A stretch of 64,000 nt of DNA from Limnoperna fortunei (lineage: Eukaryota > Mollusca > Bivalvia > Mytilida > Modiolidae). Each line of letters begins with the position of its first letter. Within the stretch, counting starts at the first letter, position 1. The position numbers and the translations under genes were made by a program. Shown here one piece after another: positions 8,486-57,397 of the stretch. The stretch covers positions 86,432,896-86,496,895 of the forward strand of contig OX104119.1 of NCBI GenBank assembly GCA_944474755.1. Reading direction: 5' to 3'. A model generated the notes under the pieces. That model was not told the DNA's origin. It made no database searches and saw only the letters and a program-made list of their open reading frames with translations.

Positions 8486-9356
8486 TTATACTTTCTTATA
8501 AACATAAACATTGTCATGACAACCAATAACAACAGATTTAGACAGTGAATTATAACATATGTATGGATTCTCATACAGAACAGATGATGATGGTATCTGT
8601 GTAATAATAACCTGACTCTGTTTACCATCAGGACTAATCCTGAGTACATTGTTAGACACATCACATATAACAAGTACATGTCCTTCATCATCTGTTGTAA
8701 TTCCCAGTGTTCCACTCATGTTAGGATCAGTAAATGTAAACAAAGTGTTCCCCACTGTATCAATACAGTACAACTTAACATAGTCAGTACAGTAGATACG
8801 TCCTGCCTCACCACCACAGATATACCCAGGTATTACACCCACTGGTATTGTACGTGTTACCTTCAATGACATGTTCATTACCTTTATTGTTCTATCATCA
8901 CAGCCTACAAACAGCTGGTTATCTCTGTACATGATACTCCAACACACCACCTTTACATCAGTACGTTGTATAACTTGTCTCTGTCTGACATCTACTATCA
9001 CTACAGTAGTATATAATTTAACAGCTACAGTGTTGTTGTCTACTACAGCTATACGCCATGGTCCACCAGGTAATGGAATGGTATGTTGTTGTTGTCCTGT
9101 TATATCACATGTTACTAATTGTTTACCATCAAGATCAGCTATAACTAACACATCATCATGTAACACCTTTATATCACTGATGTACTTTACATTGACCTTG
9201 AAGTTATAATCCAGTGAATACACGTCCTGTACATGTTGTACAATGTGATATTTAGTAGCTGTTGATTTCCTGTGTTGATTGTTACAGTACTGACACATAG
9301 ATCTCTGACAGCCATGACACCAGTATACAGATGGTTCCTTGTCACAGACATGACAC
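8486..9356 (-). CDS. TRIM-like protein, last exon: B-box zinc finger plus NHL-type beta-propeller
   Basis: The exon opens at a clear acceptor (CTTTACAG, AG at 9358-9357) and its first base completes a codon (phase 2). The first residues form a B-box-like zinc site: CHVCD, then YWCHGCQRSMCQYC and NNQHRK. A propeller of about 250 residues follows, built of short beta-rich repeats such as ISDIKVLHDDVLVIADLDG and GITTDDEGHVLVICD, with NNVLRISPDGK near the end as in TRIM-NHL proteins. It stops at TAA 8488-8486. There is no room for the usual TRIM coiled coil between B-box and propeller. Family knowledge suggests a ubiquitin-ligase or ligand-binding scaffold, but no RING is visible. The 5' exons must lie above 9364 and perhaps beyond the 31-bp satellite. 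The ATG at 9298 lies inside the B-box, so it is not the natural start. Confidence 0.8.
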
Positions 9357-10169
9357 CTGTAAAGGATTTATATAAATGTAATATCATAATTCTGACATAA
9401 AAAAACAATTGAACTTTATATTATATAAAGTAAACAAAACACCATGTTGTGTGCCTCTCCATTTAAATAGGTCAAAGGATGACCTCAAATCAGCATTAAT
9501 TCATGTAGATATAATATCATAATGATTCAAGCTATAATTGTATATAATTATATAAAGTAAACATAATAAAATATTAAATAGTCACAATGTCTGTATTTAA
9601 ATAGGTCACACGATGACAACTTGAATGCTTTAAAGTTGTGTGGTACATGTATTAACAATAAAAGTGTACAATGAAATAGACATTTAATGTAACATATTTA
9701 GTTCCATGTGTCGATAGCCTGACACAAAGATGACTTTATGATAAATATCAATAATAAACACTATACTAACTTGAATAATTAAATCTTTAAAACTTGTGGT
9801 GTCATACAAATGTACAAAATCTTCCTCGGGGTGCAGTGGGGACTTATGACCAATGAAGAAGTAATGTTCTTACAGCTAGGGATCACATTAACACAATTAG
9901 CAGTTGCGATCCTTAAAGGGGGTCACATGGACAGGTTTAATATACAAATCAGTCCGCGTGACCCCTGTAAGGTACCTACCTGTTTATCTGACCCACTCAC
10001 CCCCATGAAAATTTTTTATCTGTAAATTTTTGCTTGTTATGTCTGTTTTAAAGCTGTATGTCCTTGACATAAACAAATAAATGTTTATTTGTGTTTAATC
10101 TGTTGGTCTTAAAATAAGAATGACGAAAAAACTAAAAGGGTAAAATGAGTATTCTTTAAAAAGCATGAC
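9357..10169. other. AT-rich intron or flank upstream of the TRIM-like last exon
   Basis: No second exon of the TRIM-like gene (RING or another B-box) could be found on the minus strand. A 71-codon plus-strand frame at 9810-10025 shows no domain, splice logic or composition in its favour and is not called. Confidence 0.5.
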
Positions 10170-33166: not shown

Positions 33167-33313
33167 TCAGTCGTATTCTGATACCAAATTGACCAGTACT
33201 TGTTCTATTCCTCCATCTAATACATGCTGCGTGTTTACTTCAGAAGCAGAAGTACCCATTTTAATGTCTCTGATTTTACCCAACCATCCATTAGTTTTTA
33301 AAGATATGGCTCT
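33167..33313 (-). CDS. Candidate terminal exon of the HEPN-Ig-Roc-COR gene
   Basis: After the acceptor GCTTCCACAG the minus strand reads 48 codons from RAISLKTNGWLGK to VLVNLVSEYD and then TGA (33169-33167). The frame is phase 0, as needed to follow the COR exon, and the summed model stays a multiple of three. The peptide has no domain I recognise. An alternative acceptor about 72 nt upstream (TTTCTTACAG) would give only about 12 codons before a stop. Moderate to low confidence. Confidence 0.42.
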   Translation of the reverse strand, partial: RAISLKTNGWLGKIRDIKMGTSASEVNTQHVLDGGIEQVLVNLVSEYD

Positions 33314-36300
33314 CTGTGGAAGCATAAATATCTGTATGTGTCATAATTGTACAAACAAAGATAGGTCTTTCCCAGAATCCTGTAAGAAATTAATTTTTCT
33401 TCCTCTGTTGTTTTGAACTATATATTGGTGGGCCATTTTTTAGCCGGAATAGATTAATTCTGTGGTCATGAGTAAAACAATATATGGTTGTCAAGGGACT
33501 TTTGTTGCCATTGAAGGAGATAAAATGCAACTTCCAGTTGTAAAATGACAAATTTCAGTAACTTACATCATCCTGATTTAAAAAATATATGGTTGTTAAG
33601 GACTTTTTATATGGTTACCTTGTTGCTATAGTATAACCTTGACCCATGACCTCTAAAATTGGGCTAAAATTAAGGAATTGACTTGGTGATTATATTTTAC
33701 CCTATATGTTTACTATATAACTTCTGACAGTCTTCAAGTTTTAAGCAAAAAACTGATTAACCGATATGAGTCAAGGGCTGTAACTCAAAAACGGTTCATC
33801 ACACAATGCCAGAACAAAATGTACCAAATGAGGGTCTTGATGAGAGGAGTATTTTTCCCATTTATTGTCTTCTTCTATCCTTTATAGTTTTTGAGTTATA
33901 ATTAATAAATATAATGATAACAAGATTGGAGGCCTAAGGTCGAGGTCATTACTAATCTTCGAGATTTTGTGACAGGACAACAAATGGTAAAGACCTTAGG
34001 TGATTTCGACTTACGGTTTGTGAGTTTTTGTGATAAGCAGAGTCCTTGAACATTCAATGGATACCGCTCGCCCAGAAATTTTTTGCCAAACTATGTCATA
34101 AAGTTGTCTCAAAAGTTCCTTAACGTTTCTCACTTTTTTCTCTCAGTTTTCTTCTAACTGCTATAGTTCCAGAGATTACAGATAACAAGGTTTTCTGGCA
34201 GATAACTCCGTACAGAAAAATGTTTCGGTTTCACAGGTGAAATACGAATAGACTTTCATTGCCAAAAGCTTGTTGGGAAAGAGTGAAATGATATGTAGGG
34301 TACTCTTTAAACTCATTGGATTAAAAATATGCGGGGAAAAAAAAGAAAAAAAATCAAAGCAAAAGCAATAAGGACTTCCCACTCTATTTTGGTTTCACAG
34401 AGTGAAATCCGAATAGACTTTCAGTGCCCAAAAATTGTCCTGAAAGACCAAAATGACATGTCGCGTACTCTTTAAACTGTTTGGTTTGAAAGTTGGTGGA
34501 AAAAAAAATAAAAATAAAAAATAAAGCAAAAGTGATAAGGAAGTGGGAACAAATTTAAAGACCGATACACCACTTTCAATCATTTTTTAGCTACATAATG
34601 TACTAATATATGTATGGCATATGAATGGATGAGGGAGATACACACATTGCCATAAAAATACAAATATTTTTAAGATTTCCTACCTCTGTGTAGTCTTCAA
34701 ACCATGTCTGAAAGAAATCTTGAGTGTTATGACTGTCGCTATGTTCTTCACAAAAGAAGTCATTTCCTAATCCCACTAACTCACTGTAGCTATGGCGACC
34801 AGCAGATACGTGTATGTTGCCATCAGAGCACTTCAACTTTACAGTATAACACACACTCCTTGTTTCAAATCTTTCTTTGACTCTTTCAACTGTTACCCAC
34901 AACTCGTCTAGCATTGCTTTACAAGTTCCTTTTTCCACATTTTTCCATTGCCATATCTGAAGTGCTATTGTGTTTTTACAGAAACACAAAATAAATTTTC
35001 TGAACTTGGTTCTGTCAAGAAAGAACACTCCCATACCATGATAAATTGCCATTCGTCCAGTCTGTGGTTCAGTGCACATGGCATATTGACTGATATAATA
35101 ACACAAAATATGGTTGAAAAAGTCAAACGGCATGAAATCAAATTCAATACACAACCATGGTGTGCGCTTACAGTTATCTTTCTTCGCATTAAACCTATCA
35201 ATAATATCTGTATATGAAGCTTTCTCAGAGATCATACAAGGCATATAATAAGTAGGTAAGATTGTCCTTTGTCCATTTTCCGTTAAAGTTGTTAGCTTTA
35301 CTATAATGCCAAATATTTCCATTACATTCAGTAAATGACCACTATGTTTACTAAAATCAAGTTTTGGTTCTTTTTCAAAAAGTTTTACAATCAGAGAGTG
35401 GTCAAGCTTTCCTGTGTCTACTAGTGCTCTCCATTTATCAGACAGCTTCAAGTTGGTATCAAATTTATCCGATACAAGACATCTGAAAGCATTTGCTAAC
35501 CATTTTGGGTTAAGAATAATATATTCTTTTAAACTCTCAAAATATACGACACTTCCGACCTTATGTTGATATTTCAGGAAAAGGTTGATTTCATCCTCGC
35601 TATCGATTAAACATTTTGATGATAATTTGACAATATCTGGCCAAGATAATATATTCACACCAGCCTCTCTAAAAACATCAATTAAGTGCTCTAAACGAAT
35701 CCATTTTAAAGGCAGTTGTTCAGCAAATGTTTTCAGTTGCTTTCCATACTTAAAAATTGTGTCACGCAAACCACAGATATCCTCTTCATCAGATTCAGTG
35801 TTTGACACATAGCATACCTCTCTAATATGCTTTTTCTTAGATTCGTTTCTTAAAACAGAACCCAGCTGTTTATAGAATACTTGTTTTCTTTCTTCCAGCT
35901 TAAATGAAAAAAAACATACATGATATGATTGCACCAGTTTTTTCAGCTGGTCTAAACTGTTGTTTGCATTCTGATCAAGGGATTACATGTCCTAAATTGT
36001 ACAAATCTATTTGTATAGCTTTGTGTTATTTCACTGATAGGGAGCATAGCAGATGCGAGCTATATCATTACATGTATATGTAAAAAAGTCATGTGATCCA
36101 TATGAACAATCCCATTTCAGACGGAAGCTAAGGAATGTAGAAAAACACTAAAATAAATTTAAAGTAGGCAAAAATAATTTTTATAAAAAACAACACAATG
36201 TCAGACCATTTCCTTGCAGTCTCAAACACTGTTAAAATTGACATATGTATGACGTATGAAGCAAGGCCCAGGAAATTTTCCCAAGTCATGCCGGACATTT

Positions 36301-39300
36301 TACTGGTCATTATATGAAAGTACAAAGTACTTAAAAAAATGCAGCTAAGAAAGTTTTAGCATTCATATTTACTTTTTATTGTTTTTGCTTAAGCTGAGAT
36401 GTGTATGTGCTTTTCCTTATAGTTGAGAATTAAAGACTTTTAAATTATTTTCAAGACCGTAGTAGATATCAGTTGTGTTTTGTGATATGTTCCTAGGATA
36501 TATGCATCGTTAAAGAAAGAAAATTTATGTAGGAAAACATTCTGCTTCCTAAAATTTCTATATTATAAGATGACATGTTGTCTATTCAACATAGTAATGG
36601 CAAACAATGTTTTTATATGCACATTCATGAGACATTTTCATTAACCGGAAGTAGAAAGTTGTTACAAAATTACAATTTCGGAACAGAATTGAATTTATAC
36701 GATATTCTGCGATTGACCACGCTTTTTACAAGTTATTATTTATAGCAGGGATATACCCTAACATTTTCATCATGGTTGCCACCTGGTCTCCTAACTTAAA
36801 AAATTTTGGGGCCCAGTGAAAAAGTTAGGCGTCCACACTTTTTCATACTTTTATAATGAAAAACAATACACTCCCATAAATTAAAACTGTTCAATAAAAT
36901 GATAGGATAGAATTAGAAGTAAAAAAGACATCATTTTAAAGCAAATAATAGTATGTAGATAATGAAAAATGCACTATTAAAAGTATGTAAAGATGTAAAT
37001 TAATTTTGTTGTGAAAGTTTCTGCCAAAGACCTAATTTGTATTATGTTTATATCATTACAATACTTATTTCAACACTAGCCGCATTGTATTTGAATCTCC
37101 GGCACGGAGTTCATATCCGCCCTGGAAATTTTCGTATTTTCTTTTGCTTTGAACTGGTTTCCTGTATTATTTTCACTCTACGATTTATGTACAAAGTAAA
37201 AGTCAGACGGGACCAGCTAACACTGTGTGGCAAGTAAACATGATAAACATGATGCAGAAACAAAAATATTACGATTTCTTACCAATATGGGAATAAAATT
37301 GAAAGGAGACATACCACTACTGTTAAGAATGTCAGGGCCAAATTTGTGGAAACCTATATTGATTGCCCCCACTAAATCCTCACAAATTTTATCGCCAACC
37401 TGGAAGATCGAAAAGCAAACTTTACTCGCCCAAGCAATTATTTAGTCACCTTTACTGTTAGTGTACATCCCTGTTATAGAATGAAATATTTATTTTTGTT
37501 CTCATCATTTCAATAGAATATAATTCGAATTGATTTCCTCCAGATTTATGTACATCTGTATGATGAAATTCAATCTCTGTTGTTTCAAAATGTTGTTGCA
37601 ATAACATGTTCTATGAAATGGATGAAACAGATCTGTATTCCTAATTACGTTATCGCCTGTTATGTAATAACACTTGACCGGAGTTAATGAAACCCAATAA
37701 ACAAAGGTGCCAGTGACAGGAAATAACCATTAGCAGATTAGGGAAAATATTTCTATCTTGTTGAAATTATAGGTAATTAAAACCAATAAAAAATACCTAT
37801 ATTATTGTGCAAGTAAAATATCACTTTTTCAGATTTGACTAAACCTCAGTAAGATATTTTAATGTAAATGTCGGACATGTCTGGCAAATATGACGGTTTA
37901 CAGAACCTTGGCATGAAGTAACGTACTGAACTGTAAAATGTGAGATGATTGCATTTAGGCTGCCCCTATATTCGTATTTATTATTCATAATGACCAGAGA
38001 CATAACCCTTTATGTTTTAATTCTCGATCTCAAAAGGGTTTTTTCCCAAAATACACAGAAAACAAACTGTTCATATGTTTCAAAACACTTACATGATCTC
38101 TACATTCATCAATTCTTGTACAGACAATGATAGCTGGAGGATTGAGAAGTTCCGTCTTTATCTCCTCTTTGGTTTCTTCAATTCCACAGCAGTGAATACT
38201 ATCAAGCCAGAATTCTAGATACTCTGCAAAAAGTAATAAAGGTGACATTCTTACAAAATAACACCATTGACAATAGGCTTCCCTTTTTGTAGATTTTTTT
38301 AAATGTTTAGCAAACATGATAACCTGAATTACCTTCGATGACAACAATATGCCACAATAACGAATCATCATTAAAAATAATATGAAATGTTCAAGTGATG
38401 TTAGAATGGAGATGTGGAGGTCTTTTTGATACCTAAGAAAAGTTTTAGATAAGAATTCAGTTTTAGGATTTTTTTTACATGTCATAGGCTTCTACATTCA
38501 TGTTTAGTGATGTTCCATGGTCACAGCAATCTTGTATTTTGGATCGAAACAGAAAACTCATAATTAGTAGAGGACAATCTGAGGTACATTTTTACAAAAA
38601 CACAATTCCTTCTGCCAAGTGTTTTGTGAGAAAACGAATTTTGAAATTTCAGAAAGCATTTACAGCTATGGCAGTCATGTTTTCTATCAGCTCAAAAAAC
38701 TCAAAATAATAAGATAATTATCCAAGATTTACTTAAGGATTATTTGGATTAATTGTGAAGAACAGTTTCGGAGAAGGAGCTGTTTGCATGGTTTTCCATA
38801 AGGTTCTATGTAAAGCTGTGTTCCACGGTGGTGGCCATCTTGGATATTCACAAAAAACTTATAATTTGTAGAGGGCATCTATGGTACATTTCTGCAATAT
38901 TTCAAATTAATCTGCCAGCCAAGCGGTTTATGAGAAAATTTTCGAAATTCAGCCAATCAGAAGGCATTAATGGCTTTGTCAGCCATGTTTAATATTTCAT
39001 CAGCACCAAAAACTCAAACTTTGTTAAGAATCAACCAATAAACATTCCTGCCAAGTTTGGTTCCAATTGGACTTAGACGACGATGAATAATGCCAAGTGA
39101 TGAGAATAGCTCACATTGACCCTATGGGTCAGGTGAGCTAAAAATTGAGTGACTCCCAAAATACTTATTTTTATTATGTTTAAATCTATGCAATACACGT
39201 TTAAACACTTCACAGCATATTATTTGCAATTTCCGGCACCAACTTCAAATCTGATAAGGAATGTTTTTTTAATTTCTTTTGCTTTGAACTGGTTTCGGGT

Positions 39301-48300: not shown

Positions 48301-51300
48301 GAGTCAGCAAATTATATTTTGCCCAGCTGTTACAAAAGATTTTCTTTCAGTTTAACTATATACAATTCGCTCCTTTAGATACATGTATTATTCTCTATGA
48401 ATGTAATCATCATACCTCCAATCAAGCTAATTTAAGCACTGGATTTAAGTCACATTGTTGTCACATGCACTGATAAGCTAGTTTGTTCGTATATATTTTG
48501 AAATTTCAAAGGGTGTAAAATTCACTGGGTCAAAATTGCTGTATTATGCCAATTACATATTGTGTCATCAATGCATACCAAGTTTCATAAAATTCTGTTC
48601 AGTAGTTACAGATGAATTGCACTAAAAAAATGTGTGATAGGTAAAAGGACTTGTAGGAAAAACAGTATATTTTCCCAACAAACTGTGGAAAAATAATTTC
48701 CACTTCAACTTGACTACAAGCTCTGTCTGTCTGTCAAAACATAATGTACAGAATTGTCTCATAAGTGAAAGTCCAAAATGGCCGCTGAACATACCGTAAT
48801 AAGGGAAGCAAAAATGTATGGCACATTTTAATCTTTTTATAAGGTGTTGCTGCCCTTCAATTGACCCAATGTTGTTACTTGATCACATGACCGAAGTGTG
48901 ACATCATATATTACATCATGTTGTCGTCTGCTTCGTTTCCTCCTCCTGTGTACAACAATGTTGGTGGGAAAACGAAAAGAGCAAAGTGTTGATACAAAAC
49001 AGGCAATTATCACCTTGCATAACTCCGGAATTCGACAAGCAAAAATATAACATAGATTAGGGATACCTAGAACTACAATTACTGGTATTATTAAGAGATA
49101 TCTTTTACAAGGTAATGTGGAAAACATTAAAAGACAAGGTGCTCCTATTAGACTGAGCAACAGAGACACTTGTCGACGTTTGAGAGTTGTACATGAGAAC
49201 CGGAAAAGAACCCTGGGTGACATTACCAGTGTCTAGGCACACTATCCGGAGAAAATTGTACAGCTATGGCTACAAAAGACGAGTGGTACGGAAACGTATA
49301 TGAATAAGGGAGGTAAATAGAAAGAGACAAAAGAAAATTATATATTTCAAGATGACAATGCAGCTATTTAATAGAGCCTGTATTGTGTCAACTTACAAGA
49401 TCCAGAACAATATTCATTCCATGGAATGGCCTGCACAAAGCCCTGAATTGAATATTATTGAAAATATTGGCTAAAACCTAACCGTGAACTGAAAAACAAT
49501 TTTCCAAGGCTGGAGTCAAAGGCACAACTTGAACAGGCTATCAGACATCTTTGGACAAACCTACCTGTGAACTATATACAAAACTTGTACATGTCAATTC
49601 CTAGAATACAGAGAGAATTGAGATCAAAAGTTTATATAACCAAGTATTAAGGTAAGATTTAGTCCTTACGTGCCTCCCATGTTTGTTTGTTTTATGCTCA
49701 GTTTATAGTTTGAATGGTGGCCATATTGTTTTGGACTTTCACTTATGGTACAGTTCTGTACCAAGTTTACTTTATTACTGAGGCCTGTGTGTAGAACAAT
49801 CAACCTATAAAGGTCTTATTACTGAGGCCTGTGTAGGACAGACAACCTATAAAGGTCTAATTACTGAGGCCTGTGTGTAGAACAATCAACCTATAAAGGT
49901 CTTATTACTGAGGCCTGTGTAGAACAATCAACCTATAAAGGTCTTATTACTGAGGCCTGTGTAGGACAATCAACCTATAAAGGTCTTATTACTGAGGCCT
50001 GTGTAGAACAATCAACCTATAAAGGTCTTATTACTGAGGCCTGTGTAGGACAATCAACCTATAAAGGTCTTATTACTGAGGCCTGTGTAGGACAATCAAC
50101 CTATAAAGGTCTTATTACTGAGGCCTGTGTAGAACAATCAACCTATAAAGGTCTTATTACTGAGGCCTGTGTAGGACAGACAACCTATAAAGGTCTTATT
50201 ACTGAGGCCTGTGTAGGACAATCAACCTATAAAGGTCTTATTACTGAGGCCTGTGTAGAACAATCAACCTATAAAGGTCTTATTACTGAGGCCTGTGTAG
50301 GACAATCAACCTATAAAGGTCTTATTACTGAGGCCTGTGTAGAACAATCAACCTATAAAGGTCTTATTACTGAGGCCTGTGTAGAACAATCAACCTATAA
50401 AGGTCTTATTACTGAGGCCTGTATGGGACAGACAACCTATAAAGGTCTTATTACTGAGGCCTGTGTAGAACAATCAACCTAATAGGTCTTATTACTGAGG
50501 CCTGTGTAGAACAATCAACCTATAAAGGTCTTATTACTGAGGCCTGTGTAGGACAATCAACCTATAAAGGTCTTATTACTGAGCCCTGTGTAGGACAATC
50601 AACCTATAAAGGTCTTATTACTGAGGCCTGTGTAGGACAATCAACCTATAAAGGTCTTATTACTGAGGCCTGTGTAGAACAATCAACCTATAAAGGTCTT
50701 ATTACTGAGGCCTGTGTAGGACAATCAACCTATAAAGGTCTTATTACTGAGGCCTGTGTAGAACAATCAACCTATAAAGGTCTTATTACTGAGGCCTGTG
50801 TAGAACAATCAACCTATAAAGGTCTTATTACTGAGGCCTGTGAAGAACAATCAACCTATAAAGGTCTTATTACTGAGGCCTGTGTAGAACAATCAACCTA
50901 TAAAGGTCTTATTACTGAGGCCTGTGTGGGACAATCAACCTATAAAGGTAAAGACAAACCACAAATAATACTTGAATGCTCAACCTTATAATTACATCAA
51001 ATAATTTAATATTTACAAATGTAAATTAAAATTTAAAAATTGTTTCACCTTCTACATATAGATGTGCTTGTCTCTCAATGTCCTTTATCCTTACACTGTA
51101 TAGTCCTTTATCAGAGAGTAAAGTATTTCTTATGTCCAGACTGTGGATTTTACCAGACGTTCCTGCTATAAACTTTTCAGATCTTGCAATCTCCGCCCCA
51201 TCTTGCAACCATAGTGAGCACAGCCCGCATTCATTGGTCCAGATCTCAAAGTGAGCATCACAACCTTCAGTCACAGTGACATCACATATATCTGTGGTCA

Positions 51301-54300
51301 AACAATCTGGTTAGAAACAAATTATATTCTTAAAATAGAACTATACCAATAGAGGATAGCTATTCTGTAAATAATGTAAAGAGATGTAAATAAACACATT
51401 ATGGACCTCTAATGAAATACATGTACTTAAAAGGCTATCTTTATTCAGTTTATCACATATACATGTAATGACCATGCATGCCAGGTTAACATGTAGTTAA
51501 AAAGACATCTGAGAGGCAAAGATGAAATAGTTTACACATGAGAATATGACAAGGACCATGATGTCAAGCAAGCAATTTCATAACTTCACTTTATTTTAAT
51601 TACACATGTTAATTTTCATCAAATAAACATGTAAAATATAAACATTTGAACGATGACTAAAATTAGAACTAATTTCTAACATTCAAGAGGGTTAATTAGC
51701 AAATACAATTAACATTTTAGGTTCTACCTGGTAATTTCTTTTCAGCAAGTAGTTGTCTTATTGTCTGAAAATATAAAAAATAAAATGAAAATGAATGATT
51801 TTGATAAAATTGGACACTGATGTATAAAGAAAAGACTACTTCCACAGTTGTGTTCAACAACTCAATTAGCTGATGTGTCCTCTTTGGAAGGTTGTTCAGT
51901 TATAAAATGGAAAGAATGTATGCACACAGATCAACCGACCTGTATCATTTTGGTGAGAAGTAGTATGACACGATGAAAAAAGATATAAACAAGTTAGAAC
52001 ATGTAGAAGCCATTAAGTTTTTCCAATTTCTTTATGTTTTAAATTCACTGTAGCGAATAAAATATATTTAAACAGGATTAAGCATAGATTTGGCAAAAGA
52101 TATATTCAGTTCTTTAATCTCTTGTTTTTAATATTGTCCAACTAATCTTATTAAATAAATGAAAAAATACAGATATAGTTATAAAAATGCTAAAAAAACC
52201 TTTTAAGATACTAGTATAATTCAAATCGGACATTTAAATATAAAGAATATTCCTTTAGCTTTCGTTTATATCTTTAACATAATGCATAAACATTATTAAT
52301 GTGATTTTAATTGCACAGTCAGAGAAAGTACAATACGATATAAATCAGTTCAATGATACGGTTAAAACAAGAAATACTGCCTAGTAAGAATCACCAAATA
52401 TTGAAACATTCCAATTTAAGAAGGGGTTCAAAAGTTAAACTATAAACATTTTAATGGACATCGGCCAACAAGAAGTAGGGTTCTGAGATTTCGGATAACA
52501 GTCTATAACATACTATTTGTTTGCAAAAATCACCATATCGATCATCAAAATATTCAGATTGAAGAAAATTAAAAAGAGAGACAAAATTATGTCGACGTTC
52601 GTACCTTCTGCAAAACTGAATTTTTAAGGTCACCGCCCAAAGGAGAAGGTGGCCTTCAGATTTTGGGGTGTTGACATAAAAACAAAATAAAGACAATATT
52701 ATATGACATCGTTAAAAGCTGAGATGTTTTGGTTTTTATTGTTTGTTGATTGTTTATTATTATTTATTGTTCATTTATTAGAATTAACAATGAAAGAAAA
52801 CTGGTTAATAAACCATAAATATAAATTATTTGTAATAAAACGATGTACATTTTTGTAAGTATTGTCTTACAAGATTTGCAGATTCTTTTCTGTGTATCTT
52901 CAGGTGTCTACAGGTGTAATATGCGATGAAAATTGTGCATTATTTGATCAATTAAGGTCAATCTCGCAGTGTGTTCGAATGATATAATATTTTCCTTAGT
53001 ACGAGTAACTACATGTACGTACACATTTTCCTTTTCTCTTTTTATGTATTAAACTGTGAAATTCTTCAAATATTTGCAACCGATAATGTTAAAAATTATT
53101 AGACATAGGAAGTATCAATGTTACAGTTAGCTACAATAATGTAGCTCCTTTTTTTTTTTTTTTTTTTTTTATGGACGGAGCTACAAAGCGGTCCCATTAT
53201 TCGTAATGGAGCAGCCCGGGAGTGATTCACACCCGGGGGTTTTATGCATTTTATAAGCAATTTAACTGTTTCCCTGGTTTGCTACATACTTTTTTATGTA
53301 TTTGCAGTTTAACTGATATTTCCACAACACCGTATTTGTTAGTTTTATCACTTTATTCGTAATCATGGCATTGTTGACAAAATATGAATTCCGGAAGTGC
53401 ATAATTTCGATAATATCGGAATCGATTTGGTAAAAAATGAAATTCCGGATGATTTCAGCTGCATTCATTTGCATTATAATTATGTCCCCTTATTACAAAA
53501 TTTACCGATACGATTCCGAAATTCTACACTCCACAATTTTAATTATGTCAACAATGACACGATTACGAAAAAGTGTTAAAATTATTTAATTAGACATTGT
53601 AGACATATCAGATGAACGGCGGAGGAAAGAAAACATATTTATTTAATAAAGACAAAGGTTAAATAGCGGAAAATGTGTGTAAATCCCAAAAGTGTTTTTG
53701 CTCCATTACGAGTAATGGGACCTCTTTGTAGCTCCGTCCATAATAAAAAAAAAGGAGCTACATTATTGTAGCTATGTTACAGTTAAATATGATGCATTCG
53801 TTCTTGAGATAACTCTCATTTGTATGCTAATTAACCTTTAAATGTTCGCCTTGAGCCTTTATTATAAATTGTAGGCAGCACATTTGATAATTATTTCCTA
53901 AATTCATAACATATAATTTGTAATAAAAGTTTTACATCAATATATTGACCTACCAAGTAGATGGTTCTGTTTTATACTATTTTTTGTTGACACAGTATGA
54001 AATATTTGTACAAAATCTTGTTTGTTATGTTGTTATTTGTTGATAGGTTCGAACTCATATGTAGAGCGTTATCGACATATAACACAGATTTCCGCTTAAG
54101 CCATGCTGTGGAATTGTATCAATGAAAGCATTTACTAATTCCTCACTATGGTTTTAAGATGAATTAAAAAGCTGCTCGCTGCTTGTTACCTTTGTCCATG
54201 TCTAGTGATTTGTGTCACGAATTTATACATCATACTAGTATTCCTATTGTATTAACAATTGTAGACTTTTTGTATAATATTCAATAATGATACTAGTATA

Positions 54301-57300
54301 CAGACATTAGTTGTAAACAGTTATTGAAATGCCCCATGGCATGTGGAAGTATAAAACTAATCACTTAAGAAATACATGGCTGTTTTCAATCGTGTCAAGG
54401 GACTTTTATTACCAGTAATCGTGTCATTATAAAAAGATGAGCTTATTTTTTCCTTATCATTTTTTCAGTAAATGTGTAAAGAAAAATGATTCAAAGTCCT
54501 AATAAATTGGAATCGGAAGAAAAGTTTTGGGGTCAGAAAAAAGTTGGATAAATGTCCTTTTGAACAAAAACACTTGAGACAAAAATATAATGAATATATT
54601 GTGCAGAAGCGTAAATTTTGCATTTATTTGTTCAAATTTGTGATGCCAGTACCTTTGGAACATACATATATTGCCAGTTAACAAATGAAAACTTATAAAA
54701 TGATTTAATACATGTATGTTAATTGACAAATATATGCTAAATAATTTTTTACTACACTATATTTGATACAGTGAGTTTATAACGTAGCGATTTGTTAAAA
54801 GTCATCTGTAGACGTATAGTTCTTAACTTAATGAGATCTTTTTTCATCGTGTCATACTACTTCTCACCAAAATGATATACTAGTAAGTTGGTTCAGGTTG
54901 ATCAGTGTGGTAATTAAGTGGAAAATAGTTGGCAACATGTTTAAAAAGTGTGACCCTTTTATGTCAATTTAGAAAATGAAAAGGCACATTGGTTCCTTCT
55001 AAAAAGTATAAAATTCTCTGTCCACACACAAATCTTAACACTGTACTGGTAGTTACCAAATTACCCACTATCATTACTATCCAATAAAATCCTGTTAAGA
55101 ATTGATTGTATACTGTCATTGTCTAGAATGCAATATATTTTTGTCTGTAAAAGAAAAGGAAGCTTGACACATTTATTACTACTGCTGTTTTAATTGCAGG
55201 ATAAACGTATACTAATACATTTTAGCCATGACATACATTTAAATGAATACTAAAAACCATCTGCTACATTTACACTCCTCATGATTAGGCCCTGGTTTCA
55301 TAAAACATCTTGAGCTCAAATTTGAGGATTTACTCAACTAATCCATGTTATCTCTAACTTATACATGTTATATTAACCACTCAGATTGCTGGATTATAAT
55401 TCATAGCTCACCACACTGAGCAAAGGACCTGAAGTCGCCCTAAGGCGCCTCAAAAGTGAAGTCAAAGTCGCCCTCTTAGGCTCTTATTTCCCTCAAGTTG
55501 CCTGATGGTTCACAAAAGATACTTGTAAATCTGGTTCAAATACTTCACCCAGACTACCAATTTATCAGTAAATGTGTAATTCCAATAAAAAACGGCAAAC
55601 AATACTCGTATTTAACATATTCTCAAACAATTTACGTCGTTCAAATATATTACCTGCCATTTGTTTATTTACCAGATGTGACTATAGCTAATTACCGGAA
55701 GTGCACAATGAAGAAAAGTAATGTACAACAGCCCATAATGAAAATTCATAATTTTTTTGATAAACAAAAACTTTTAATTGGTTTCAAACCAGTTCTTTCA
55801 AAGAGGATTTTAGAAGTGACTGCAAAGGGACAAGTACAAATTTTACTAAAGATCACGAAAACGCTTGGATGAACAGAGCTTGCTAACAATAGTTGCAAAA
55901 CTACTTAGAGATTCATTCATCACTTTGTACAGGGCTCACCGTACTGGGCAATTTTCTTTGATAAGTATATGAGCTCCACTTGAAAGAATAAAGATGTATA
56001 GAAATTATTGACATCATGATAAGTTCTGTAGATGGGTGTCCCATGAAGCAATTTAGATGAGCACAACTTTGTCCAAGTGAAAGTGTGCTGAACAGAAGAA
56101 TTATTTCTGGGTTTTATGTAATGTTATTCTATCTATCTTCTTTGGAAATTTGCTCAGATAAACATGGCATGTTCATAACACCCTGTTTTAAATATTATGA
56201 TACAAGAACTGATGAATGAAGTTTATGTCTATACATATACAAATATTTTTGTTGATCTATTGTTATTTGTCAATACCTTTTACCTGTTGTAATATGGCTA
56301 CATGTACTGAAGATAGAAAAATAGTCCCAATATATGGTGTTTTTTTCATTGATTAATGATAAAGGTTATGTGCTGTTTGATATTGCATACCATGAATAAT
56401 AATGAAAAAGAAAGAAAAACAACTGAATCTAAGTGTGTTATAGATGTAAATAATGAAAAATGAAATGTAACTACTCCGAAATTAATTATTTGTACGGTCC
56501 CCCTGATTTCTCCCTAGTGTCTCCTGAAGTCTCTCTATCAGGGCCTGACTTCTCCCTGTTTGACTGCCAAGGAGAAGTCACTTCTCCCTACTTTTTTAGA
56601 GTGTGGTGACCCCTTGTTACTAAAGTATTTAATCATGAGGAAGTAGTAGGAAATTAGAGAAAAATTTAATGAGTTTTAAAAAACCAAGTTCTTACTTTAT
56701 CTTACCTCGTCTATCTGACATTGTTGGAGAAGTGTGTTCTGTAACTGTAGACATATAGAGGAATTTAGGGGTTGTTTAGAAATATCATACAGTCTCTGTT
56801 TGGTTTCTGTTTCCTTTCCATAAACCTTTGCTAGAACTAATAATGATTTCTCCATTTCTGTCATAGACTTTTGGTATTCACCGTTGGAAATTTTTCCTTC
56901 TTTAGCATGACCAAATGAGTGGTTCCTGGAATTAACTAGGTCATCCAGAGCAATCCTCTCAGGAGATCCTTGTGGTACAAGTGTTGTAAAGTTAACCAGA
57001 AGAAGTCTAGCCAGGGTAAAGTCAAGGTCCTGTAGCTGTAGGTTAGAATTGACAGGACAACAACAATGTGGAGCTGATTTGCTTCTAGGGTTATGTACTG
57101 GTAACTTATTGCCAGTTTTGTCAAACAATATGTCCATTTGTGGTGGATGTAGGACTCGACTGCCTCTGGTTCTTGTCCGAGTTCCGGATGGACACTGGCA
57201 ACAAGGATAACAATTGAAACACAGATGATAAATGAAATGTCCATTTATCTCAATAAGCTTCTGGAGTGTTATGCCTTGACTTGTCAGATGGAAATCCATT

Positions 57301-57397
57301 AGATGTAGGAATGAATCTTTGGTGACATCTACAATCACTGTTGAGTGGCGGTAGAAGTTTTCTTGTTCCTGTGTCATCTTTCTTTCAGGTCTAGACA
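33167..57397 (-). CDS. HEPN-Ig-Ig-Ig-Roc-COR (ROCO family) protein, ten-exon gene model
   Basis: Spliced model on the minus strand: 57397-56706, 51764-51728, 51306-51049, 47912-47655, 46448-46191, 44523-44233, 40588-40019, 38223-38093, 35898-34684, 33313-33167. Each boundary has GT and AG, and each donor phase matches the next acceptor. From the ATG at 57377 the model gives 1278 residues. Domains: DZIP3-like HEPN 1-224; Ig 237-322, 323-408 and 409-494; Roc GTPase about 540-880 with an acidic insert about 592-730; COR about 885-1230; tail 1231-1278. No signal peptide or membrane segment is seen, so it should be cytosolic. Roc-COR proteins are GTP-controlled dimers; HEPN domains with R-x4-6-H often cut RNA. 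A role as an immune or stress sensor is inference. An upstream 5' exon is likely, since the first exon begins at an acceptor. The C-terminal exon is the least certain part. Confidence 0.8.
33314..34683. other. Putative last intron, with a tandem duplication
   Basis: Contains two roughly 164-bp units at about 34227-34390 and 34391-34560 (both with GGTTTCACAG and CGAATAGACTTTCA), and dispersed-repeat-like text such as GTCAAGGGCTGTAACTC near 33770. Frames at 34176-34382 and 34395-34583 are poly-T-driven and not called. Confidence 0.5.
34684..35898 (-). CDS. Exon encoding the end of Roc and the COR domain
   Basis: A 405-codon exon, phase 0 at both ends: acceptor TTTCATTTAAG before CTGGAAGAAAG, donor GAG/GTAGGA. 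It starts with the last Roc helix and a G5-like VSNTE (residues 856-860). Then comes the COR signature: LPLKWIRLEHLIDVF, a charged helix, VGSVVYFESLKEYIILNPKW and LANAFRCLV. This is the part of ROCO proteins that mediates dimerisation and couples to the GTPase. The rest (about 975-1230) is a second COR lobe or an uncharacterised module rich in aromatic and cysteine residues (TPWLCIEFDFMPFDFFNHIL). No kinase, LRR or death domain is visible. The open frame runs past the donor to 34603, but that tail is probably intronic. Confidence 0.9.
35899..38092. other. Intron between Roc G4 and COR exons
   Basis: No exon found. The segment at about 37060-37330 is a diverged copy of one at about 39170-39480, sharing TTTCTTTTGCTTTGAACTGG and AACATGATGCAG, so both are probably copies of one dispersed repeat. 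Small frames are not called. Confidence 0.5.
38093..38223 (-). CDS. Roc exon carrying the G4 motif
   Basis: A 131-nt exon: acceptor ACTTTTTGCAG, donor CAT/GTAAGTG (near-consensus). It enters at phase 1 and leaves at phase 0. It encodes EYLEFWLDSIHC (a helix typical of Roc after switch II), then NPPAIIVCTRIDEC. TRID (residues 817-820) stands in the guanine-specificity (G4) place, where many ROCO proteins have T-H-x-D. The join to the preceding exon creates a GAG codon, giving KIG-EYLEFW without a gap, which strongly supports both splice sites. Confidence 0.88.
38480..39145. mobile_element. Interspersed element with terminal hairpin (Helitron-like non-autonomous type?)
   Basis: Two diverged units of about 300 bp each run through a landmark series (ATCTTG, TTGGAT, TAGAGG, GGTACATTT, TGCCA, AGAAAA, AAACTCAAA). 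They are followed by a short tail with GACGACGATG and a hairpin at 39107-39140: TAGCTCAC, TGACCC, loop, GGGTCA, GTGAGCTA. The last 19 bases, GGGTCAGGTGAGCTAAAAA, are identical to those of the element at 40740-42503. Layout suggests a non-autonomous rolling-circle-like element; the class is inference. Confidence 0.6.
39623..39890 (+). mobile_element. tRNA-derived SINE, full length
   Basis: The head carries an A box TGGCCGAGTGG (39633-39643) and a B box GGTTCGATTCT (39697-39707), as in a pol III promoter. A body with GGGGTTCTCTCTGGGTACTC and CTGGACGCCAT follows, then an (AAAC)n tail. Two more copies lie in the window (44876-45110 and 30957-31110). Possibly one of the molluscan V-SINE-type families such as RUDI, but that is from memory and unchecked. 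Confidence 0.85.
40019..40588 (-). CDS. Roc exon with long acidic insert and the G3 (DFAG) motif
   Basis: A 570-nt exon, phase 1 at both ends; acceptor TTATTTTACAG, donor GAG/GTTTGT. Residues 592-730 are Ser/Glu-rich and probably disordered (for example MSEEIEMEVESTSQL), with a basic stretch KKKELLLRLKKAK at the start. This separates the G2 and G3 motifs, which are normally close. Then comes the GTPase core again: ECGLLDFAGEKEYYATHPIF, with DFAG (737-740) as switch II. The strand LNPNAIHLLVANI follows. The insert could be a regulatory loop or phosphorylation target; that is inference. Confidence 0.9.
40740..42503. mobile_element. Interspersed element with ~10 tandem 165-167-bp core repeats and a terminal hairpin
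   Basis: A 16-bp perfect palindrome, AGGCTCTTAAGAGCCT (40746-40761), and GCTCACCTG mark one end. Core units repeat at GAATTTCC or GAATATC points 40973, 41140, 41307, 41474, 41639, 41806, 41971 and 42138; within them CCATCCAAACAATATTGCTA and AAGTCCTGCGGTGGCGGCCA recur. The other end has a GCCGCC-rich stretch and a strong hairpin at 42467-42499, finishing GGTGAGCTAAAAA. A tandem ~160-bp core between distinctive ends is the plan I recall for bivalve pearl or Helentron-type non-autonomous elements; I infer the class from layout only. Frames of 60-135 codons on the minus strand here are repeat products. Confidence 0.75.
43071..43705. repeat. First copy of a ~630-bp direct duplication
   Basis: Matches 43706-44332 along its length with small indels. 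Shared landmarks include TTAAAGTGTTTGTTTATCAA, CAAATGGCGCGTAATCCATT and TTACCGGACCAAGCG. It ends within a copied piece of the P-loop exon. Confidence 0.85.
43606..43705 (-). pseudogene. Truncated duplicate of the Roc P-loop exon
   Basis: A 100-nt copy of the 3' end of the exon 44233-44523, starting mid-helix just after the P-loop and ending at the same donor (ATG/GTATGT). It reads LLRQSLMGVQSTDG and then VDIHRCKINLSNGQ without a stop; compared with the true exon there are Lys-to-Arg and Asn-to-His changes. It has no P-loop and no acceptor of its own, so it should be silent. Confidence 0.75.
43706..44332. repeat. Second copy of the ~630-bp direct duplication
   Basis: About 627 bp, immediately following the first copy. 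Its right end overlaps the genuine P-loop exon, so this is probably the ancestral copy. Confidence 0.85.
44233..44523 (-). CDS. Roc exon carrying the P-loop (G1) and G2
   Basis: A 291-nt exon, phase 1 at both ends: acceptor TTAATACACAG, donor ATG/GTATGT. After a linker (SIRSVDRELFPSLIEIPKAI) it encodes RKVIIGENVVGKTCLLRRLL; GENVVGKT (residues 546-553) is a Walker A of the GxxxxGKT type. QSTDGVDI supplies the switch I threonine (G2) and NGQWIFND the following beta strand. All residues needed for nucleotide binding are present here. This exon identifies the gene as a ROCO-type GTPase when joined to the DFAG, TRID and COR exons downstream. Confidence 0.9.
44876..45110 (+). mobile_element. Diverged, partly deleted SINE copy
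   Basis: Follows the SINE at 39623 from GGGCCTCTGTGG through TTGACAAGGATTGCCAG and CTTTCTCCCCAC to CTGAAATTAGAATTAAA. The A box has lost about 8 bp and the B box is altered (GGTTTGAGTCT), so the copy is old. Confidence 0.75.
45160..45920. repeat. 45-bp minisatellite (15-codon frame), early units 54 bp
   Basis: Units contain GAATGTCATAACTTAGAGTC then AAGTGTTCAGGGCAGACAAA. The first four units carry an extra GAAAAAAGAA-type segment (54 bp); later ones are 45 bp. Since both lengths are multiples of three, one plus-strand frame (45159-45833) stays open for 224 codons with a real ATG, repeating RIECHNLESSVQGRQ. It lies antisense in an intron, with no splice or promoter support, so it is called a repeat rather than a gene. 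Confidence 0.9.
46191..46448 (-). CDS. Third Ig-domain exon
   Basis: A 258-nt exon (phase 1-1), acceptor CCATTACAG, donor AAG/GTTAGA. No long ATG-started frame flags it; it was found by reading the strand against the neighbouring Ig exons. It encodes AYFTKQFSTITCIEGETVQF, then ECEV, VWFKDGTEM, GKLHRLVVNNARLEDKGKYS and VQIKHCVRQTEL. This is the C, W, L-x-D-x-G-x-Y pattern of I-set Ig domains. The F-strand cysteine is replaced (YSVQI), so no canonical disulphide forms, as suits a cytosolic protein. Confidence 0.82.
46449..47654. other. Intron between Ig2 and Ig3 exons
   Basis: No exon seen. It contains a small foldback at 47495-47588 (TATCTGCCCTGATATCTTC against its inverted copy) and a near-copy of the end of the Ig2 exon at about 47594-47630. 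Confidence 0.6.
47495..47588. repeat. 94-bp imperfect palindrome
   Basis: The outer arms (47495-47513 and 47570-47588) are inverted copies with one mismatch in 19 bp. Inner TATATCTCCCC and GGGCAGATATAGG also pair partly. It could be a tiny MITE; no target duplication is evident. Confidence 0.65.
47655..47912 (-). CDS. Second Ig-domain exon
   Basis: A 258-nt exon (phase 1-1), acceptor ACTTTTTACAG, donor TAG/GTAAAT. It encodes EYFTKNLQSVECIEGEKAVF, TCEV, PACWNKNGINL, KIHRLSIKNCELHDTAKYTV and ETSLVVIG. The B-strand cysteine and the core tryptophan are present, but the F strand reads YTVNI without cysteine. It aligns over its full length with the third Ig exon, so the two probably arose by exon duplication. 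The ATG 31 nt upstream of the exon is intronic. Confidence 0.85.
48749..49758 (+). mobile_element. Tc1/mariner-family element, decayed
   Basis: Terminal inverted repeats of 30 bp (48749-48778 and 49729-49758) differ at 3 positions; both begin CAGAA and share CATAAGTGAAAGTCCAAAA. TA dinucleotides flank both ends, as expected for TA target duplication. The 1010-bp length and the internal transposase remains fit a once complete Tc1-like transposon. It lies in an intron, opposite in sense to the host gene. Confidence 0.88.
48958..49651 (+). pseudogene. Tc1-like transposase pseudogene
   Basis: From ATG 48958 the plus strand reads a helix-turn-helix segment (DTKQAIITLHNSGIRQAKI, stop, HRLGIPRTTITGIIKRY), then IRLSNRDTCRRL, a catalytic-region remnant FQDDNAAI near 49350 and MEWPAQSPELNIIENI near 49420. 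The last is the usual W-P-x-x-S-P-D/E-L-N-x-I-E motif around a DDE/D residue. At least four stops and several frameshifts break it, so no active enzyme is made. The 128-codon minus-strand frame at 48837-49223 is only its antisense shadow. Confidence 0.85.
49776..50948. repeat. 42-bp minisatellite, about 28 copies
   Basis: The unit contains CTTATTACTGAGGCCTGTGT then AGAACAATCAACCTATAAAGG. Spacing is 42 bp (for example 49911 and 49953). Early units have extra GT; one unit near 50480 lacks 2 bp. Copies alternate between GTAGAACAATC and GTAGGACAATC. One frame is open (ITEACVEQSTYKGL repeated) but has no ATG. Confidence 0.95.
51049..51306 (-). CDS. First Ig-domain exon
   Basis: A 258-nt exon (phase 1-1), acceptor TTTCTAACCAG, donor AAG/GTGAAA. 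It encodes DCLTTDICDVTVTEGCDAHF, EIWTNECGLCSLWLQDG, KIHSLDIRNTLLSDKGLYSV and RQAHLYVEG. The W, D-K-G-x-Y and hydrophobic spacing fit an I-set Ig fold. It is the most diverged of the three: the B-strand cysteine is missing (HFEIW) while two cysteines sit in the next loop. Confidence 0.8.
51307..51727. other. Short intron (421 bp)
   Basis: AT-rich; no feature seen. Confidence 0.5.
51728..51764 (-). CDS. 37-nt linker exon
   Basis: A micro-exon with acceptor TATTTTCAG and donor CAG/GTAGAA. Of the three frames only phase 0 is open; it reads TIRQLLAEKKLP and ends at phase 1. Exactly this pair of phases is needed to join the HEPN exon (ends phase 0) to the first Ig exon (starts phase 1). It forms a helical, charged linker between the domains. 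Confidence 0.65.
51943..51984 (+). repeat. Left member of a 42-bp perfect inverted repeat
   Basis: Identical, in inverse orientation, to 54836-54877. Contains GGTGAGAAGTAGTATGACAC. Partial similarity continues outward (GATCAACC and CACAC). Confidence 0.9.
53129..53773. mobile_element. 645-bp MITE with long TIRs and 11-bp target duplication (Mutator-like?)
   Basis: The ends are inverted copies over about 80 bp: AGCTACAATAATGTAGCTCC, a poly-T run, ATGGACGGAGCTACAAAG, GGTCCCATTA and GTAATGGAGCA. The sequence ATGTTACAGTT directly flanks both ends (53118-53128 and 53774-53784). Duplications of 9-11 bp are typical of Mutator-like elements. No transposase is encoded. Confidence 0.85.
54836..54877 (-). 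repeat. Right member of a 42-bp perfect inverted repeat
   Basis: The reverse complement of 51943-51984 without a mismatch. Confidence 0.9.
56706..57397 (-). CDS. Exon encoding a DZIP3-like HEPN domain
   Basis: Acceptor TTCTTGCAG, donor GAG/GTAAGA. The first ATG in frame (57377-57375) gives MTQEQENFYRHSTVIVDVTK; it is taken as the start because the HEPN fold begins just after, though upstream codons are open to the acceptor. The exon holds a long helical domain: LHLMDFHLTSQGITLQKLIE, a Cys-rich patch CFNCYPCCQC (53-62) with CCCP (105-108), then LDFTLARLLLVNF and DDLVNSRNHSFGHAKEG. R151-N152-x4-H157 fits the R-x4-6-H motif of HEPN ribonucleases. The shape matches the DZIP3-type HEPN common in bivalve immune-like proteins (from memory). 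The exon ends at phase 0 after residue 224. Confidence 0.85.

What the first reader, a model, noticed from the sequence alone, without database searches (positions are those of the whole stretch)
33167..57397. A HEPN - triple Ig - Roc - COR gene: possible RNase-armed ROCO GTPase
Seen: ten exons with matching phases encode a DZIP3-like HEPN domain with RNHSFGH, three I-set Ig domains, a Roc GTPase with GENVVGKT, STDG, DFAG and TRID, and a COR domain. Known: Roc-COR units are GTP-switched dimers, and HEPN domains with R-x4-6-H often act as RNases in defence and stress systems. Inference: ligand or RNA sensing through the Ig or COR parts may gate a HEPN ribonuclease, much as NLR or RNase L-like switches do. 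I know of no well-described system with this exact order.
Basis: partly seen in the sequence, partly recalled or inferred. Interest (0 to 1): 0.88.

Follow-up and report, generated by a model that had tools for sequence, protein, structure and literature searches.

The report
Mussel RNase-like ROCO GTPase gene family
The sequence is one member of a large, shuffled gene family in a mussel-like bivalve that joins a probable RNA-cutting domain to immunoglobulin domains and a GTP-driven switch of the kind found in the Parkinson's protein LRRK2, probably as part of innate defence.

Summary
Nine minus-strand exons with AG/GT borders and matching phases encode a HEPN_DZIP3-like domain, three cytosolic-type I-set Ig domains, a split Roc GTPase and a full COR domain. 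A tenth exon is unconfirmed. In the joined protein Ig, Roc and COR pass Pfam's cut-offs, and the COR model matches Chlorobium Roco and LRRK2 folds. HEPN is just below its cut-off; a fold search could not confirm it. Its R-N-x3-[GA]-H motif is kept in 30 of 30 exons examined (window's own included), under purifying selection.

It is not a lone gene. In the same 1.34-Gb genome, 89 distinct places carry HEPN, first Ig and Roc exons in this order on one strand, largely near contig ends. The window and three other copies read share the chain. HEPN, Ig1-Ig2 and Ig3-Roc-COR segments vary largely independently: one neighbour is 96% identical in COR but 51% in HEPN, with a break in the Ig2-Ig3 intron. 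So modules have been swapped.

Best reading: a cytosolic, GTP-switched HEPN effector family of innate immunity; RNase activity and sensing are inferred. The pieces are known (oyster HEPN-Ig-DED-TRADD-N, HEPN-NACHT, Mytilus Ig-ROCO); I saw the HEPN-Ig-ROCO combination in no paper found.

The parts
56706..57377 (-). Exon 1: HEPN_DZIP3-like domain, residues 1-224; donor after codon 224 (phase 0); a splice acceptor lies 20 bases upstream of the ATG, so a 5' untranslated exon is likely
   Evidence: start Met and frame match P0001
56907..56927 (-). R151-N-H-S-F-G-H157, the R-x5-H motif of the putative HEPN RNase site
   Evidence: R, N and H invariant in 30 of 30 exons, the window's own included; 109 of 224 positions are invariant in that set
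51728..51764 (-). Exon 2: 12-residue linker TIRQLLAEKKLP
   Evidence: related exon at the same place in copy A, E 0.015; no match below E 0.05 in C10 or D
51049..51306 (-). Exon 3: Ig domain 1 (I-set)
   Evidence: 150 of 748 candidates scored in the genome, in two similarity classes
47655..47912 (-). Exon 4: Ig domain 2 (I-set)
46191..46448 (-). Exon 5: Ig domain 3 (I-set)
44233..44523 (-). Exon 6: Roc part 1, P-loop GENVVGKT (from residue 546) and switch I STDG
40019..40588 (-). Exon 7: Roc part 2, an acidic stretch of 145 residues (29 D/E, 13 K/R) followed by DFAG (G3) at residue 737
   Evidence: a like insert is visible by eye in Mytilus relatives
38093..38223 (-). Exon 8: Roc part 3, TRID (G4) at residue 817
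34684..35898 (-). Exon 9: end of Roc plus COR-A and COR-B
   Evidence: Pfam COR-A over cut-off; model pLDDT 82.5, best fold matches C. tepidum Roco COR (E 6e-14), then LRRK2
33167..33313 (-).
   Evidence: AG site and phase fit; no match in C10, while A and D were not fetched far enough; the donor after exon 9 is conserved in A and D, so some further exon is likely
46744..47655 (-). Stretch of the Ig2-Ig3 intron in which homology to neighbour D changes from exons with short pieces to long intron alignments (recombination zone)

Best explanation
SHOWN: the locus is one member of a large family of HEPN-Ig-Ig-Ig-Roc-COR genes in a mussel-like bivalve genome, built from at least three modules (HEPN; Ig1-Ig2; Ig3-Roc-COR) that have been exchanged between family members. 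INFERRED mechanism: the protein is cytosolic. The Roc-COR tandem is a GTP-driven dimerising switch. In the resting state it holds two HEPN domains apart or masked. On a pathogen or damage cue, received through the Ig array or a partner, the GTP cycle changes the COR dimer and lets the HEPN domains pair into a metal-independent endoRNase that cuts cellular or foreign RNA, causing translation shut-off or cell death. This would be the same logic as HEPN-NACHT/STAND proteins, with a ROCO GTPase in place of the STAND ATPase. Module swapping would diversify the repertoire.
For: Exon chain and domains. Both domain junctions are backed by other species: HEPN to Ig in P0001, Ig to Roc in P0122 and P0147. 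Family: 83 clean HEPN-Roc-COR triples and 89 distinct HEPN-Ig1-Roc genes, with 0 of 150 Ig1 exons having a listed HEPN on the opposite strand within 25 kb. The window and copies A, C10 and D have the same chain (exon 2 seen only in the window and A), with GTPase and HEPN motifs kept. R151, N152 and H157 are invariant in 30 of 30 exons and in three Mytilus genes; median pairwise dN/dS of HEPN is 0.21 over 429 of 435 pairs. COR fold. Defence analogy: HEPN-Death-nSTAND3-ANK relative; oyster HEPN-Ig-DED-TRADD-N and bacterial AP-GTPase-COR conflict systems (PMC8195603, passages); pearl-oyster HEPN_DZIP3 expansion with Rx4-6H in 194 of 202 (PMC9646362, passages).
Confidence: 0.5

Rival explanations
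1. Same gene family and same GTP-switched dimer, but HEPN is a non-catalytic interaction or RNA-binding domain; the protein is a scaffold or adaptor of defence or stress signalling.
For: HEPN is divergent from the Pfam family, carries several invariant Cys (C59, C60, C62, C105, C106), and the active site of DZIP3-type HEPN is only 'mostly conserved' in the family table of PMC3710099 (passage). Conservation of the motif could reflect the fold, as 109 of 224 positions are invariant in the close set.
Against: R, N and H are invariant in 30 of 30 exons and kept in three Mytilus proteins of three genes, where 57 of 224 positions are invariant, and in the diverged second HEPN class of C10 and D (RNESYGH).
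Confidence: 0.3
2. Two adjacent genes duplicated as a cassette: HEPN-Ig (ending after Ig3) and a separate Roc-COR gene.
For: P0001 of Mytilus coruscus is HEPN-Ig without Roc-COR. In the window and in copy D the frame meets a TAG just past the Ig3 donor, so an unspliced or alternatively ended HEPN-Ig form is possible.
Against: Exon 6 starts mid-codon (phase 1) after a splice acceptor, and coding sequence shared with the other copies precedes its first Met. Annotated Mytilus proteins join Ig to Roc (P0122, P0147). Ig3, Roc and COR diverge together in copy D.
Confidence: 0.1
3. A decaying, repeat-rich gene cluster with little present function (many pseudogenes); the window copy may not be expressed.
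For: Copy A has a stop in the COR exon; stops in 4 of 150 HEPN, 7 of 150 Roc, 3 of 150 Ig1 and 3 of 103 COR exon hits, these being the best-scoring ones; large minisatellites and a partly duplicated exon in the window.
Against: Most scored exons are open. Pairwise dN/dS is about 0.2 for HEPN and 0.25-0.39 for COR. The window copy has no stop in exons 1-9.
Confidence: 0.1

Closest known systems
Crassostrea gigas HEPN - Ig repeats - DED - TRADD-N expansion (PMC8195603, passages)
   Same: Bivalve lineage-specific expansion; N-terminal HEPN followed by Ig repeats; predicted immune effector
   Different: Switch is DED-TRADD-N plus WD40 or cGAS-TPR; here Roc-COR, with no DED called by Pfam in the joined exons
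HEPN_DZIP3-NACHT (NLR-like) proteins of pearl oyster (PMC9646362, passages) and HEPN-Death-nSTAND3-ANK of Mytilus galloprovincialis (P0157)
   Same: N-terminal HEPN_DZIP3 with an R...H motif ahead of an NTP switch; P0157 HEPN is 51% identical
   Different: STAND ATPase instead of Roc-COR GTPase; LRR, TPR or WD40, or Death and ankyrin, instead of Ig
Mytilus Ig-ROCO and receptor-like ROCO proteins (P0121, P0122, P0147)
   Same: Closest Roc-COR relatives found (31-37% identity over 92-93% of the Roc-COR query); a like insert in Roc; Ig before Roc in P0122 and P0147
   Different: No HEPN called; several start with an ectodomain and membrane span (judged by eye), and some end in a beta-propeller
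ROCO family (LRRK1/2, DAPK1, MFHAS1, C. tepidum Roco) and bacterial AP-GTPase-COR conflict systems
   Same: Roc GTPase followed by COR; COR fold matches 3dpu, 3dpt, 6hlu and LRRK2; bacterial forms carry variable effectors (PMC8195603, passages)
   Different: Effector is an N-terminal HEPN, not a kinase or a C-terminal bacterial effector; no LRR called
Mytilus coruscus OBSCN-named protein P0001
   Same: HEPN plus I-set Ig, 42% identity over residues 1-494 including the start
   Different: Seven Ig domains and another C-terminus; no Roc-COR

Membership tests
ROCO (Roc-COR) proteins | Roc GTPase with P-loop, G3 and G4 | tested here: met
   Pfam Roc 30.8 bits over cut-off 27 in the joined protein; GENVVGKT, STDG, DFAG, TRID
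ROCO (Roc-COR) proteins | COR directly after Roc | tested here: met
   Pfam COR-A 52.6; COR fold, Foldseek E 6e-14 to C. tepidum Roco
ROCO (Roc-COR) proteins | GTP-dependent dimer cycle | not testable with these tools
   needs protein
HEPN superfamily, DZIP3 family | Profile match over the curated cut-off | tested here: inconclusive
   25.5 bits against cut-off 27 in the exon; 28 of 28 exons scanned (window's own included) match at E<=0.1 and no other family does; hhalign to genuine HEPN_DZIP3 of the same genome E 2.9e-5, probability 48%, reversed control score -2.5
HEPN superfamily, DZIP3 family | R-x4-6-H motif with Asn after Arg | tested here: met
   30 of 30 exons, window's own included; RN aligned to RN of genuine HEPN_DZIP3
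HEPN superfamily, DZIP3 family | HEPN helical-bundle fold | tested here: inconclusive
HEPN superfamily, DZIP3 family | Metal-independent RNase activity | not testable with these tools
   needs enzyme assay
NLR / STAND immune receptors | NACHT or other STAND ATPase | tested here: not met
   no NACHT or STAND among the nine families listed at E<=1 for the joined protein
Oyster HEPN-Ig-DED-TRADD-N proteins | DED-TRADD-N after Ig | tested here: not met
   no death-fold family listed at E<=1 in the ten exons; Roc-COR stands there
Obscurin/titin I-set proteins | Obscurin architecture (long Ig/FN3 array, RhoGEF or kinase) | tested here: not met
   only three I-set stretches and no FN3, RhoGEF or kinase listed; the vertebrate obscurin hits listed cover 16-25% of the query

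The most novel reading that the evidence does not exclude
An innate immune repertoire of RNase-armed ROCO GTPases: dozens of genes in one animal in which a Roc-COR switch, not a STAND ATPase, gates a HEPN endoribonuclease, and in which effector (HEPN), Ig1-Ig2 and switch (Ig3-Roc-COR) modules are reshuffled between genes by recombination in introns. It would be, as far as I know, the first ROCO-gated nuclease and an animal counterpart of the bacterial AP-GTPase-COR conflict systems.
Probability: 0.45. Interest if true: 0.85.

Novelty: new variant of a known kind. Interest (0 to 1): 0.72.

Why it matters
ROCO proteins are studied mostly through LRRK2 and DAPK, where what the GTPase switch controls is debated (recalled). 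A large natural family in which the switch is wired to a small putative RNase would give a readout that is easy to assay. It would also add a GTPase-based class to animal HEPN immune effectors and show an animal defence repertoire that diversifies by exchanging effector, Ig and switch cassettes.

Tried and rejected
Whole-protein homology search was swamped by obscurin hits; region searches replaced it. Fold search of the HEPN model gave nothing significant; no HEPN-named entry was among the rows shown, which is no evidence against the fold. PDB sequence search with the COR exon was weak (3dpt E 0.16); the fold search was clear. Considered and rejected: obscurin/titin-like muscle protein; NLR; bacterial contaminant (introns; the 89 genes lie on ten contigs, seven of which have known lengths of 51-103 Mb). 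Positive selection on Ig exons as a sign of sensing: looked for, not found (only the 44-codon Roc3 exon in the window-D pair exceeds 1). Rfam: no match. Extra 5' coding exons upstream of the ATG: not searched systematically.

Limits: genome searches score only the best candidates (150 of 417 COR-A, 150 of 550 HEPN_DZIP3, 150 of 312 HEPN exon, 103 of 567 COR exon, 150 of 344 Roc exon, 150 of 748 Ig1), so counts are lower bounds and copies missing from one list cannot be called absent. Class limits (60% for HEPN and Ig1, 75% for Roc) were set after seeing the values. Identity is to one reference copy, not a tree. In one search three of the 92 rows were dropped because they share one HEPN; 58 of the 89 have a COR identity. 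A search with the second HEPN class as query did not complete. Six of 435 HEPN pairs (dS 0.02 or less, or not computable) were left out of the dN/dS median.

Literature. Searches returned largely unrelated papers because common words met their minimum. Supplements could not be read, so the list of expanded Pfam families in PMC5836269 (passages) was not checked.

Full report
What was checked. I rebuilt the gene on the minus strand from the window sequence. In the joined protein Pfam finds three I-set stretches, Roc and COR-A above their cut-offs. HEPN_DZIP3 is below its cut-off of 27: 24.5 bits in the open frame, 25.5 in the exon, 18.6 in the whole protein. The Ig domains lack the usual cysteine pair and the protein has no signal-peptide-like start (both judged by eye), so a cytosolic place is likely.

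Exon 10. No match to it below E 0.05 was found in the three other copies read, but only C10 was fetched far enough past COR to hold it. The splice donor after exon 9 is conserved in copies A and D, so a further exon is likely, but which one is open. Four of the seven Mytilus relatives that I printed end in or carry a beta-propeller after COR (P0121, P0125, P0129, P0140; by eye). About 25 kb downstream of exon 9, on the same strand and past a 20-kb minisatellite, the window has a B-box plus propeller frame whose propeller is 30% identical to that of P0121. Whether it belongs to this gene is unknown.

Support from other species. The HEPN-Ig part aligns from the start methionine through Ig3 with a Mytilus coruscus protein named OBSCN (P0001; 42% over residues 1-494), which has seven Ig domains and no Roc-COR. 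The Roc-COR part finds 36 proteins, all from Mytilus species, at 27-37% identity; partner domains listed there include Ig, fibronectin III, ankyrin, PARP with macro, LRAT and HSP70, but no HEPN. In P0122 and P0147 an Ig precedes Roc on one chain. The HEPN part finds two isoforms of a Mytilus galloprovincialis HEPN-Death-nSTAND3-ankyrin protein (51%) and one M. edulis protein. That search missed P0001, so it is not exhaustive. Each junction is thus seen elsewhere, but the full order was in none of the proteins retrieved.

The genome. The window lies at C9:86432896-86496895 of an assembly of 1,335,373,924 bases in 285 contigs. COR-A gave 417 first-look candidates, of which 150 were scored and all 150 passed the cut-off. 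HEPN_DZIP3 gave 550, of which 150 were scored and all 150 passed. Size and the number of large contigs seen (C1-C15) fit Limnoperna fortunei (1.34 Gb, n = 15; PMC10541798, abstract and assembly section). That identity is inferred, not shown by a tool.

One architecture, many copies. With the window's HEPN exon as query, 150 of 312 candidates were scored, 146 of 150 free of stops. With the COR exon, 103 of 567, 100 of 103 free of stops. With the first Roc exon, 150 of 344, 143 of 150 free of stops. With the Ig1 exon, 150 of 748, 147 of 150 free of stops. Within 30 kb a listed HEPN lies upstream on the same strand for 98 of 150 Roc exons and upstream on the opposite strand for 0; downstream it is 0 on the same strand and 1 on the opposite strand. 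There are 85 HEPN-Roc-COR triples, 83 with no other listed element between. Of 150 Ig1 exons, 114 have a HEPN upstream within 25 kb, 0 have one on the opposite strand within 25 kb, 112 have a Roc exon downstream within 45 kb, and 92 have both; these are 89 distinct genes. The 89 lie on ten contigs, 45 of them on C9. Of the 73 on contigs whose length I know, 59 lie within 10 Mb of an end, a zone that makes up 24% of those contigs. Besides the window, three copies were read: A (C4:100443901-100457500), C10 (C10:77361901-77377500) and D (C9:86628001-86651500). All show HEPN, Ig1, Ig2, Ig3, three Roc exons and COR in order on one strand; exon 2 was found only in A. Copy A has a stop in its COR exon.

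Module swapping. Identity to the window protein by exon: A: HEPN 84, Ig1 38, Ig2 44, Ig3 69, COR 77 (main piece). C10: HEPN 52, Ig1 80, Ig2 78, Ig3 69, COR 80. D: HEPN 51, Ig1 80, Ig2 80, Ig3 95, Roc1 94, Roc2 79, Roc3 89, COR 96. Between window and D, the long DNA pieces (over 700 bases) all lie between 46744 and 34143 and are 84-93% identical, introns included; upstream only the Ig1 (82%) and Ig2 (87%) exons and short intron pieces (77-87%, partly repeats) align, and HEPN does not align as DNA. Synonymous divergence jumps accordingly: 0.35 and 0.32 in Ig1 and Ig2; 0.045, 0.083 and 0.074 in Ig3, Roc1 and COR; saturated in HEPN. Another neighbour, at C9:86552172-86573604, is alike in all exons measured (HEPN 99, Ig1 94, Roc 95, COR 93). 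Over the 89 genes all four combinations of HEPN class and Ig1 class occur (39, 34, 14, 2), as do those of HEPN with Roc (49, 24, 13, 3) and of Ig1 with Roc (41, 21, 15, 12). Rank correlation of identity is -0.18 for HEPN-Ig1, 0.09 for Ig1-Roc and 0.27 for HEPN-Roc (n = 89), but 0.69 for Roc-COR (n = 58). In the same 58, HEPN-COR is 0.40 and Ig1-COR -0.31, so independence is not complete. In the 68 triples with a COR identity the values were 0.27 (HEPN-Roc), 0.32 (HEPN-COR) and 0.66 (Roc-COR).

Is the HEPN real and kept? Of the 30 HEPN loci fetched (the window's own among them), 28 were scanned (L057 and L066 left out): 28 of 28 match HEPN_DZIP3 at E<=0.1 and nothing else. Profile comparison to genuine HEPN_DZIP3 of the same genome gives E 5.8e-4, probability 29%, and E 2.9e-5, probability 48%, with C10 and Mytilus relatives added (reversed control score -2.5). 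R151, N152 and H157 are invariant in 30 of 30 exons, but so are 109 of 224 positions; median pairwise dN/dS is 0.21 over 429 pairs. The motif also holds in P0001, P0157 and P0159 and in the second HEPN class (RNESYGH in C10 and D). The structural check was inconclusive. I take the domain as a divergent DZIP3-type HEPN, likely but not proven catalytic.

Is the ROCO part real? Yes: the motifs are present in four of four copies, COR-A is above cut-off, and the COR exon model (pLDDT 82.5) has C. tepidum Roco and LRRK2 as best fold matches. The window copy has V where A, C10 and D have G in the P-loop (GENVVGKT against GENGVGKT); by recalled Ras numbering this is the Gly13 position, so the window copy may have an altered cycle (inference).

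How it most likely works. ROCO switches act as GTP-driven dimers (recalled), and AP-GTPase-COR proteins of bacterial conflict systems carry exchangeable effectors (PMC8195603, passages). HEPN RNases work as dimers (recalled), and HEPN_DZIP3 sits N-terminal to NACHT in pearl oyster (PMC9646362, passages). The simplest joint reading is a GTP-gated HEPN pair in the cytosol. The Ig array may sense, space or dock; its dN/dS below 1 does not favour fast-evolving ligand contact. Steps shown: architecture, family, swapping, constraint. Steps inferred: GTP binding, dimerisation, RNase activity, immune role.

Novelty. Oyster HEPN-Ig-DED-TRADD-N proteins are described (PMC8195603, passage), HEPN-NACHT proteins are described (PMC9646362), TIR-ROCO proteins are described in Aplysia (PMC9334734, passages), and DZIP3-type HEPN fusions in animals are listed without Roc (PMC3710099, passage). 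In the listings, and in the passages that I read, I saw no description of HEPN with Ig and Roc-COR; most listed papers were not opened and supplements were not readable. I class it as a new variant of a known kind.

Noticed in passing
window 43703-43600: A second, partial copy of the 3' half of exon 6 with flanking intron lies in the following intron; in the DNA alignment to copy D both copies match the same D stretch.
   Followed up: partly
window 10453-30962 and 2-6366: Large minisatellites (31/62-bp and 39-bp units) with strong G-over-C skew downstream of the gene.
   Followed up: no
window 49772-50949, 45168-45917, 40835-42407: Tandem arrays of 42, 45 and 167 bp inside the gene's introns.
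   Followed up: no
window 8486-9367, minus strand: B-box plus beta-propeller open frame (both below Pfam cut-offs); the propeller is 30% identical to the C-terminal propeller of Mytilus ROCO protein P0121.
   Followed up: partly
P0121, P0125, P0129, P0140: Mytilus ROCO relatives look like receptors: signal-peptide-like start, Cys-rich ectodomain, membrane span, Roc-COR, propeller (by eye).
   Followed up: no
P0142, P0148, P0123, P0137: Mytilus ROCO proteins with PARP plus macro, LRAT, or nSTAND3 plus ankyrin domains on the same chain; some may be gene-model fusions.
   Followed up: partly
G000:C9:86594145-86594639: Partial HEPN copy (92%, residues 1-165) stranded between two family members, as unequal crossing-over would leave.
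   Followed up: no
G000:C5:17140859, 17147919, 17154253: Three HEPN exons (83-84% identical to the window's) about 7 kb apart on one strand.
   Followed up: no
exon 1, C59 C60 C62 C105 C106: Cysteines invariant in the HEPN exons and in three Mytilus relatives suggest a metal-binding site beside the HEPN core.
   Followed up: no
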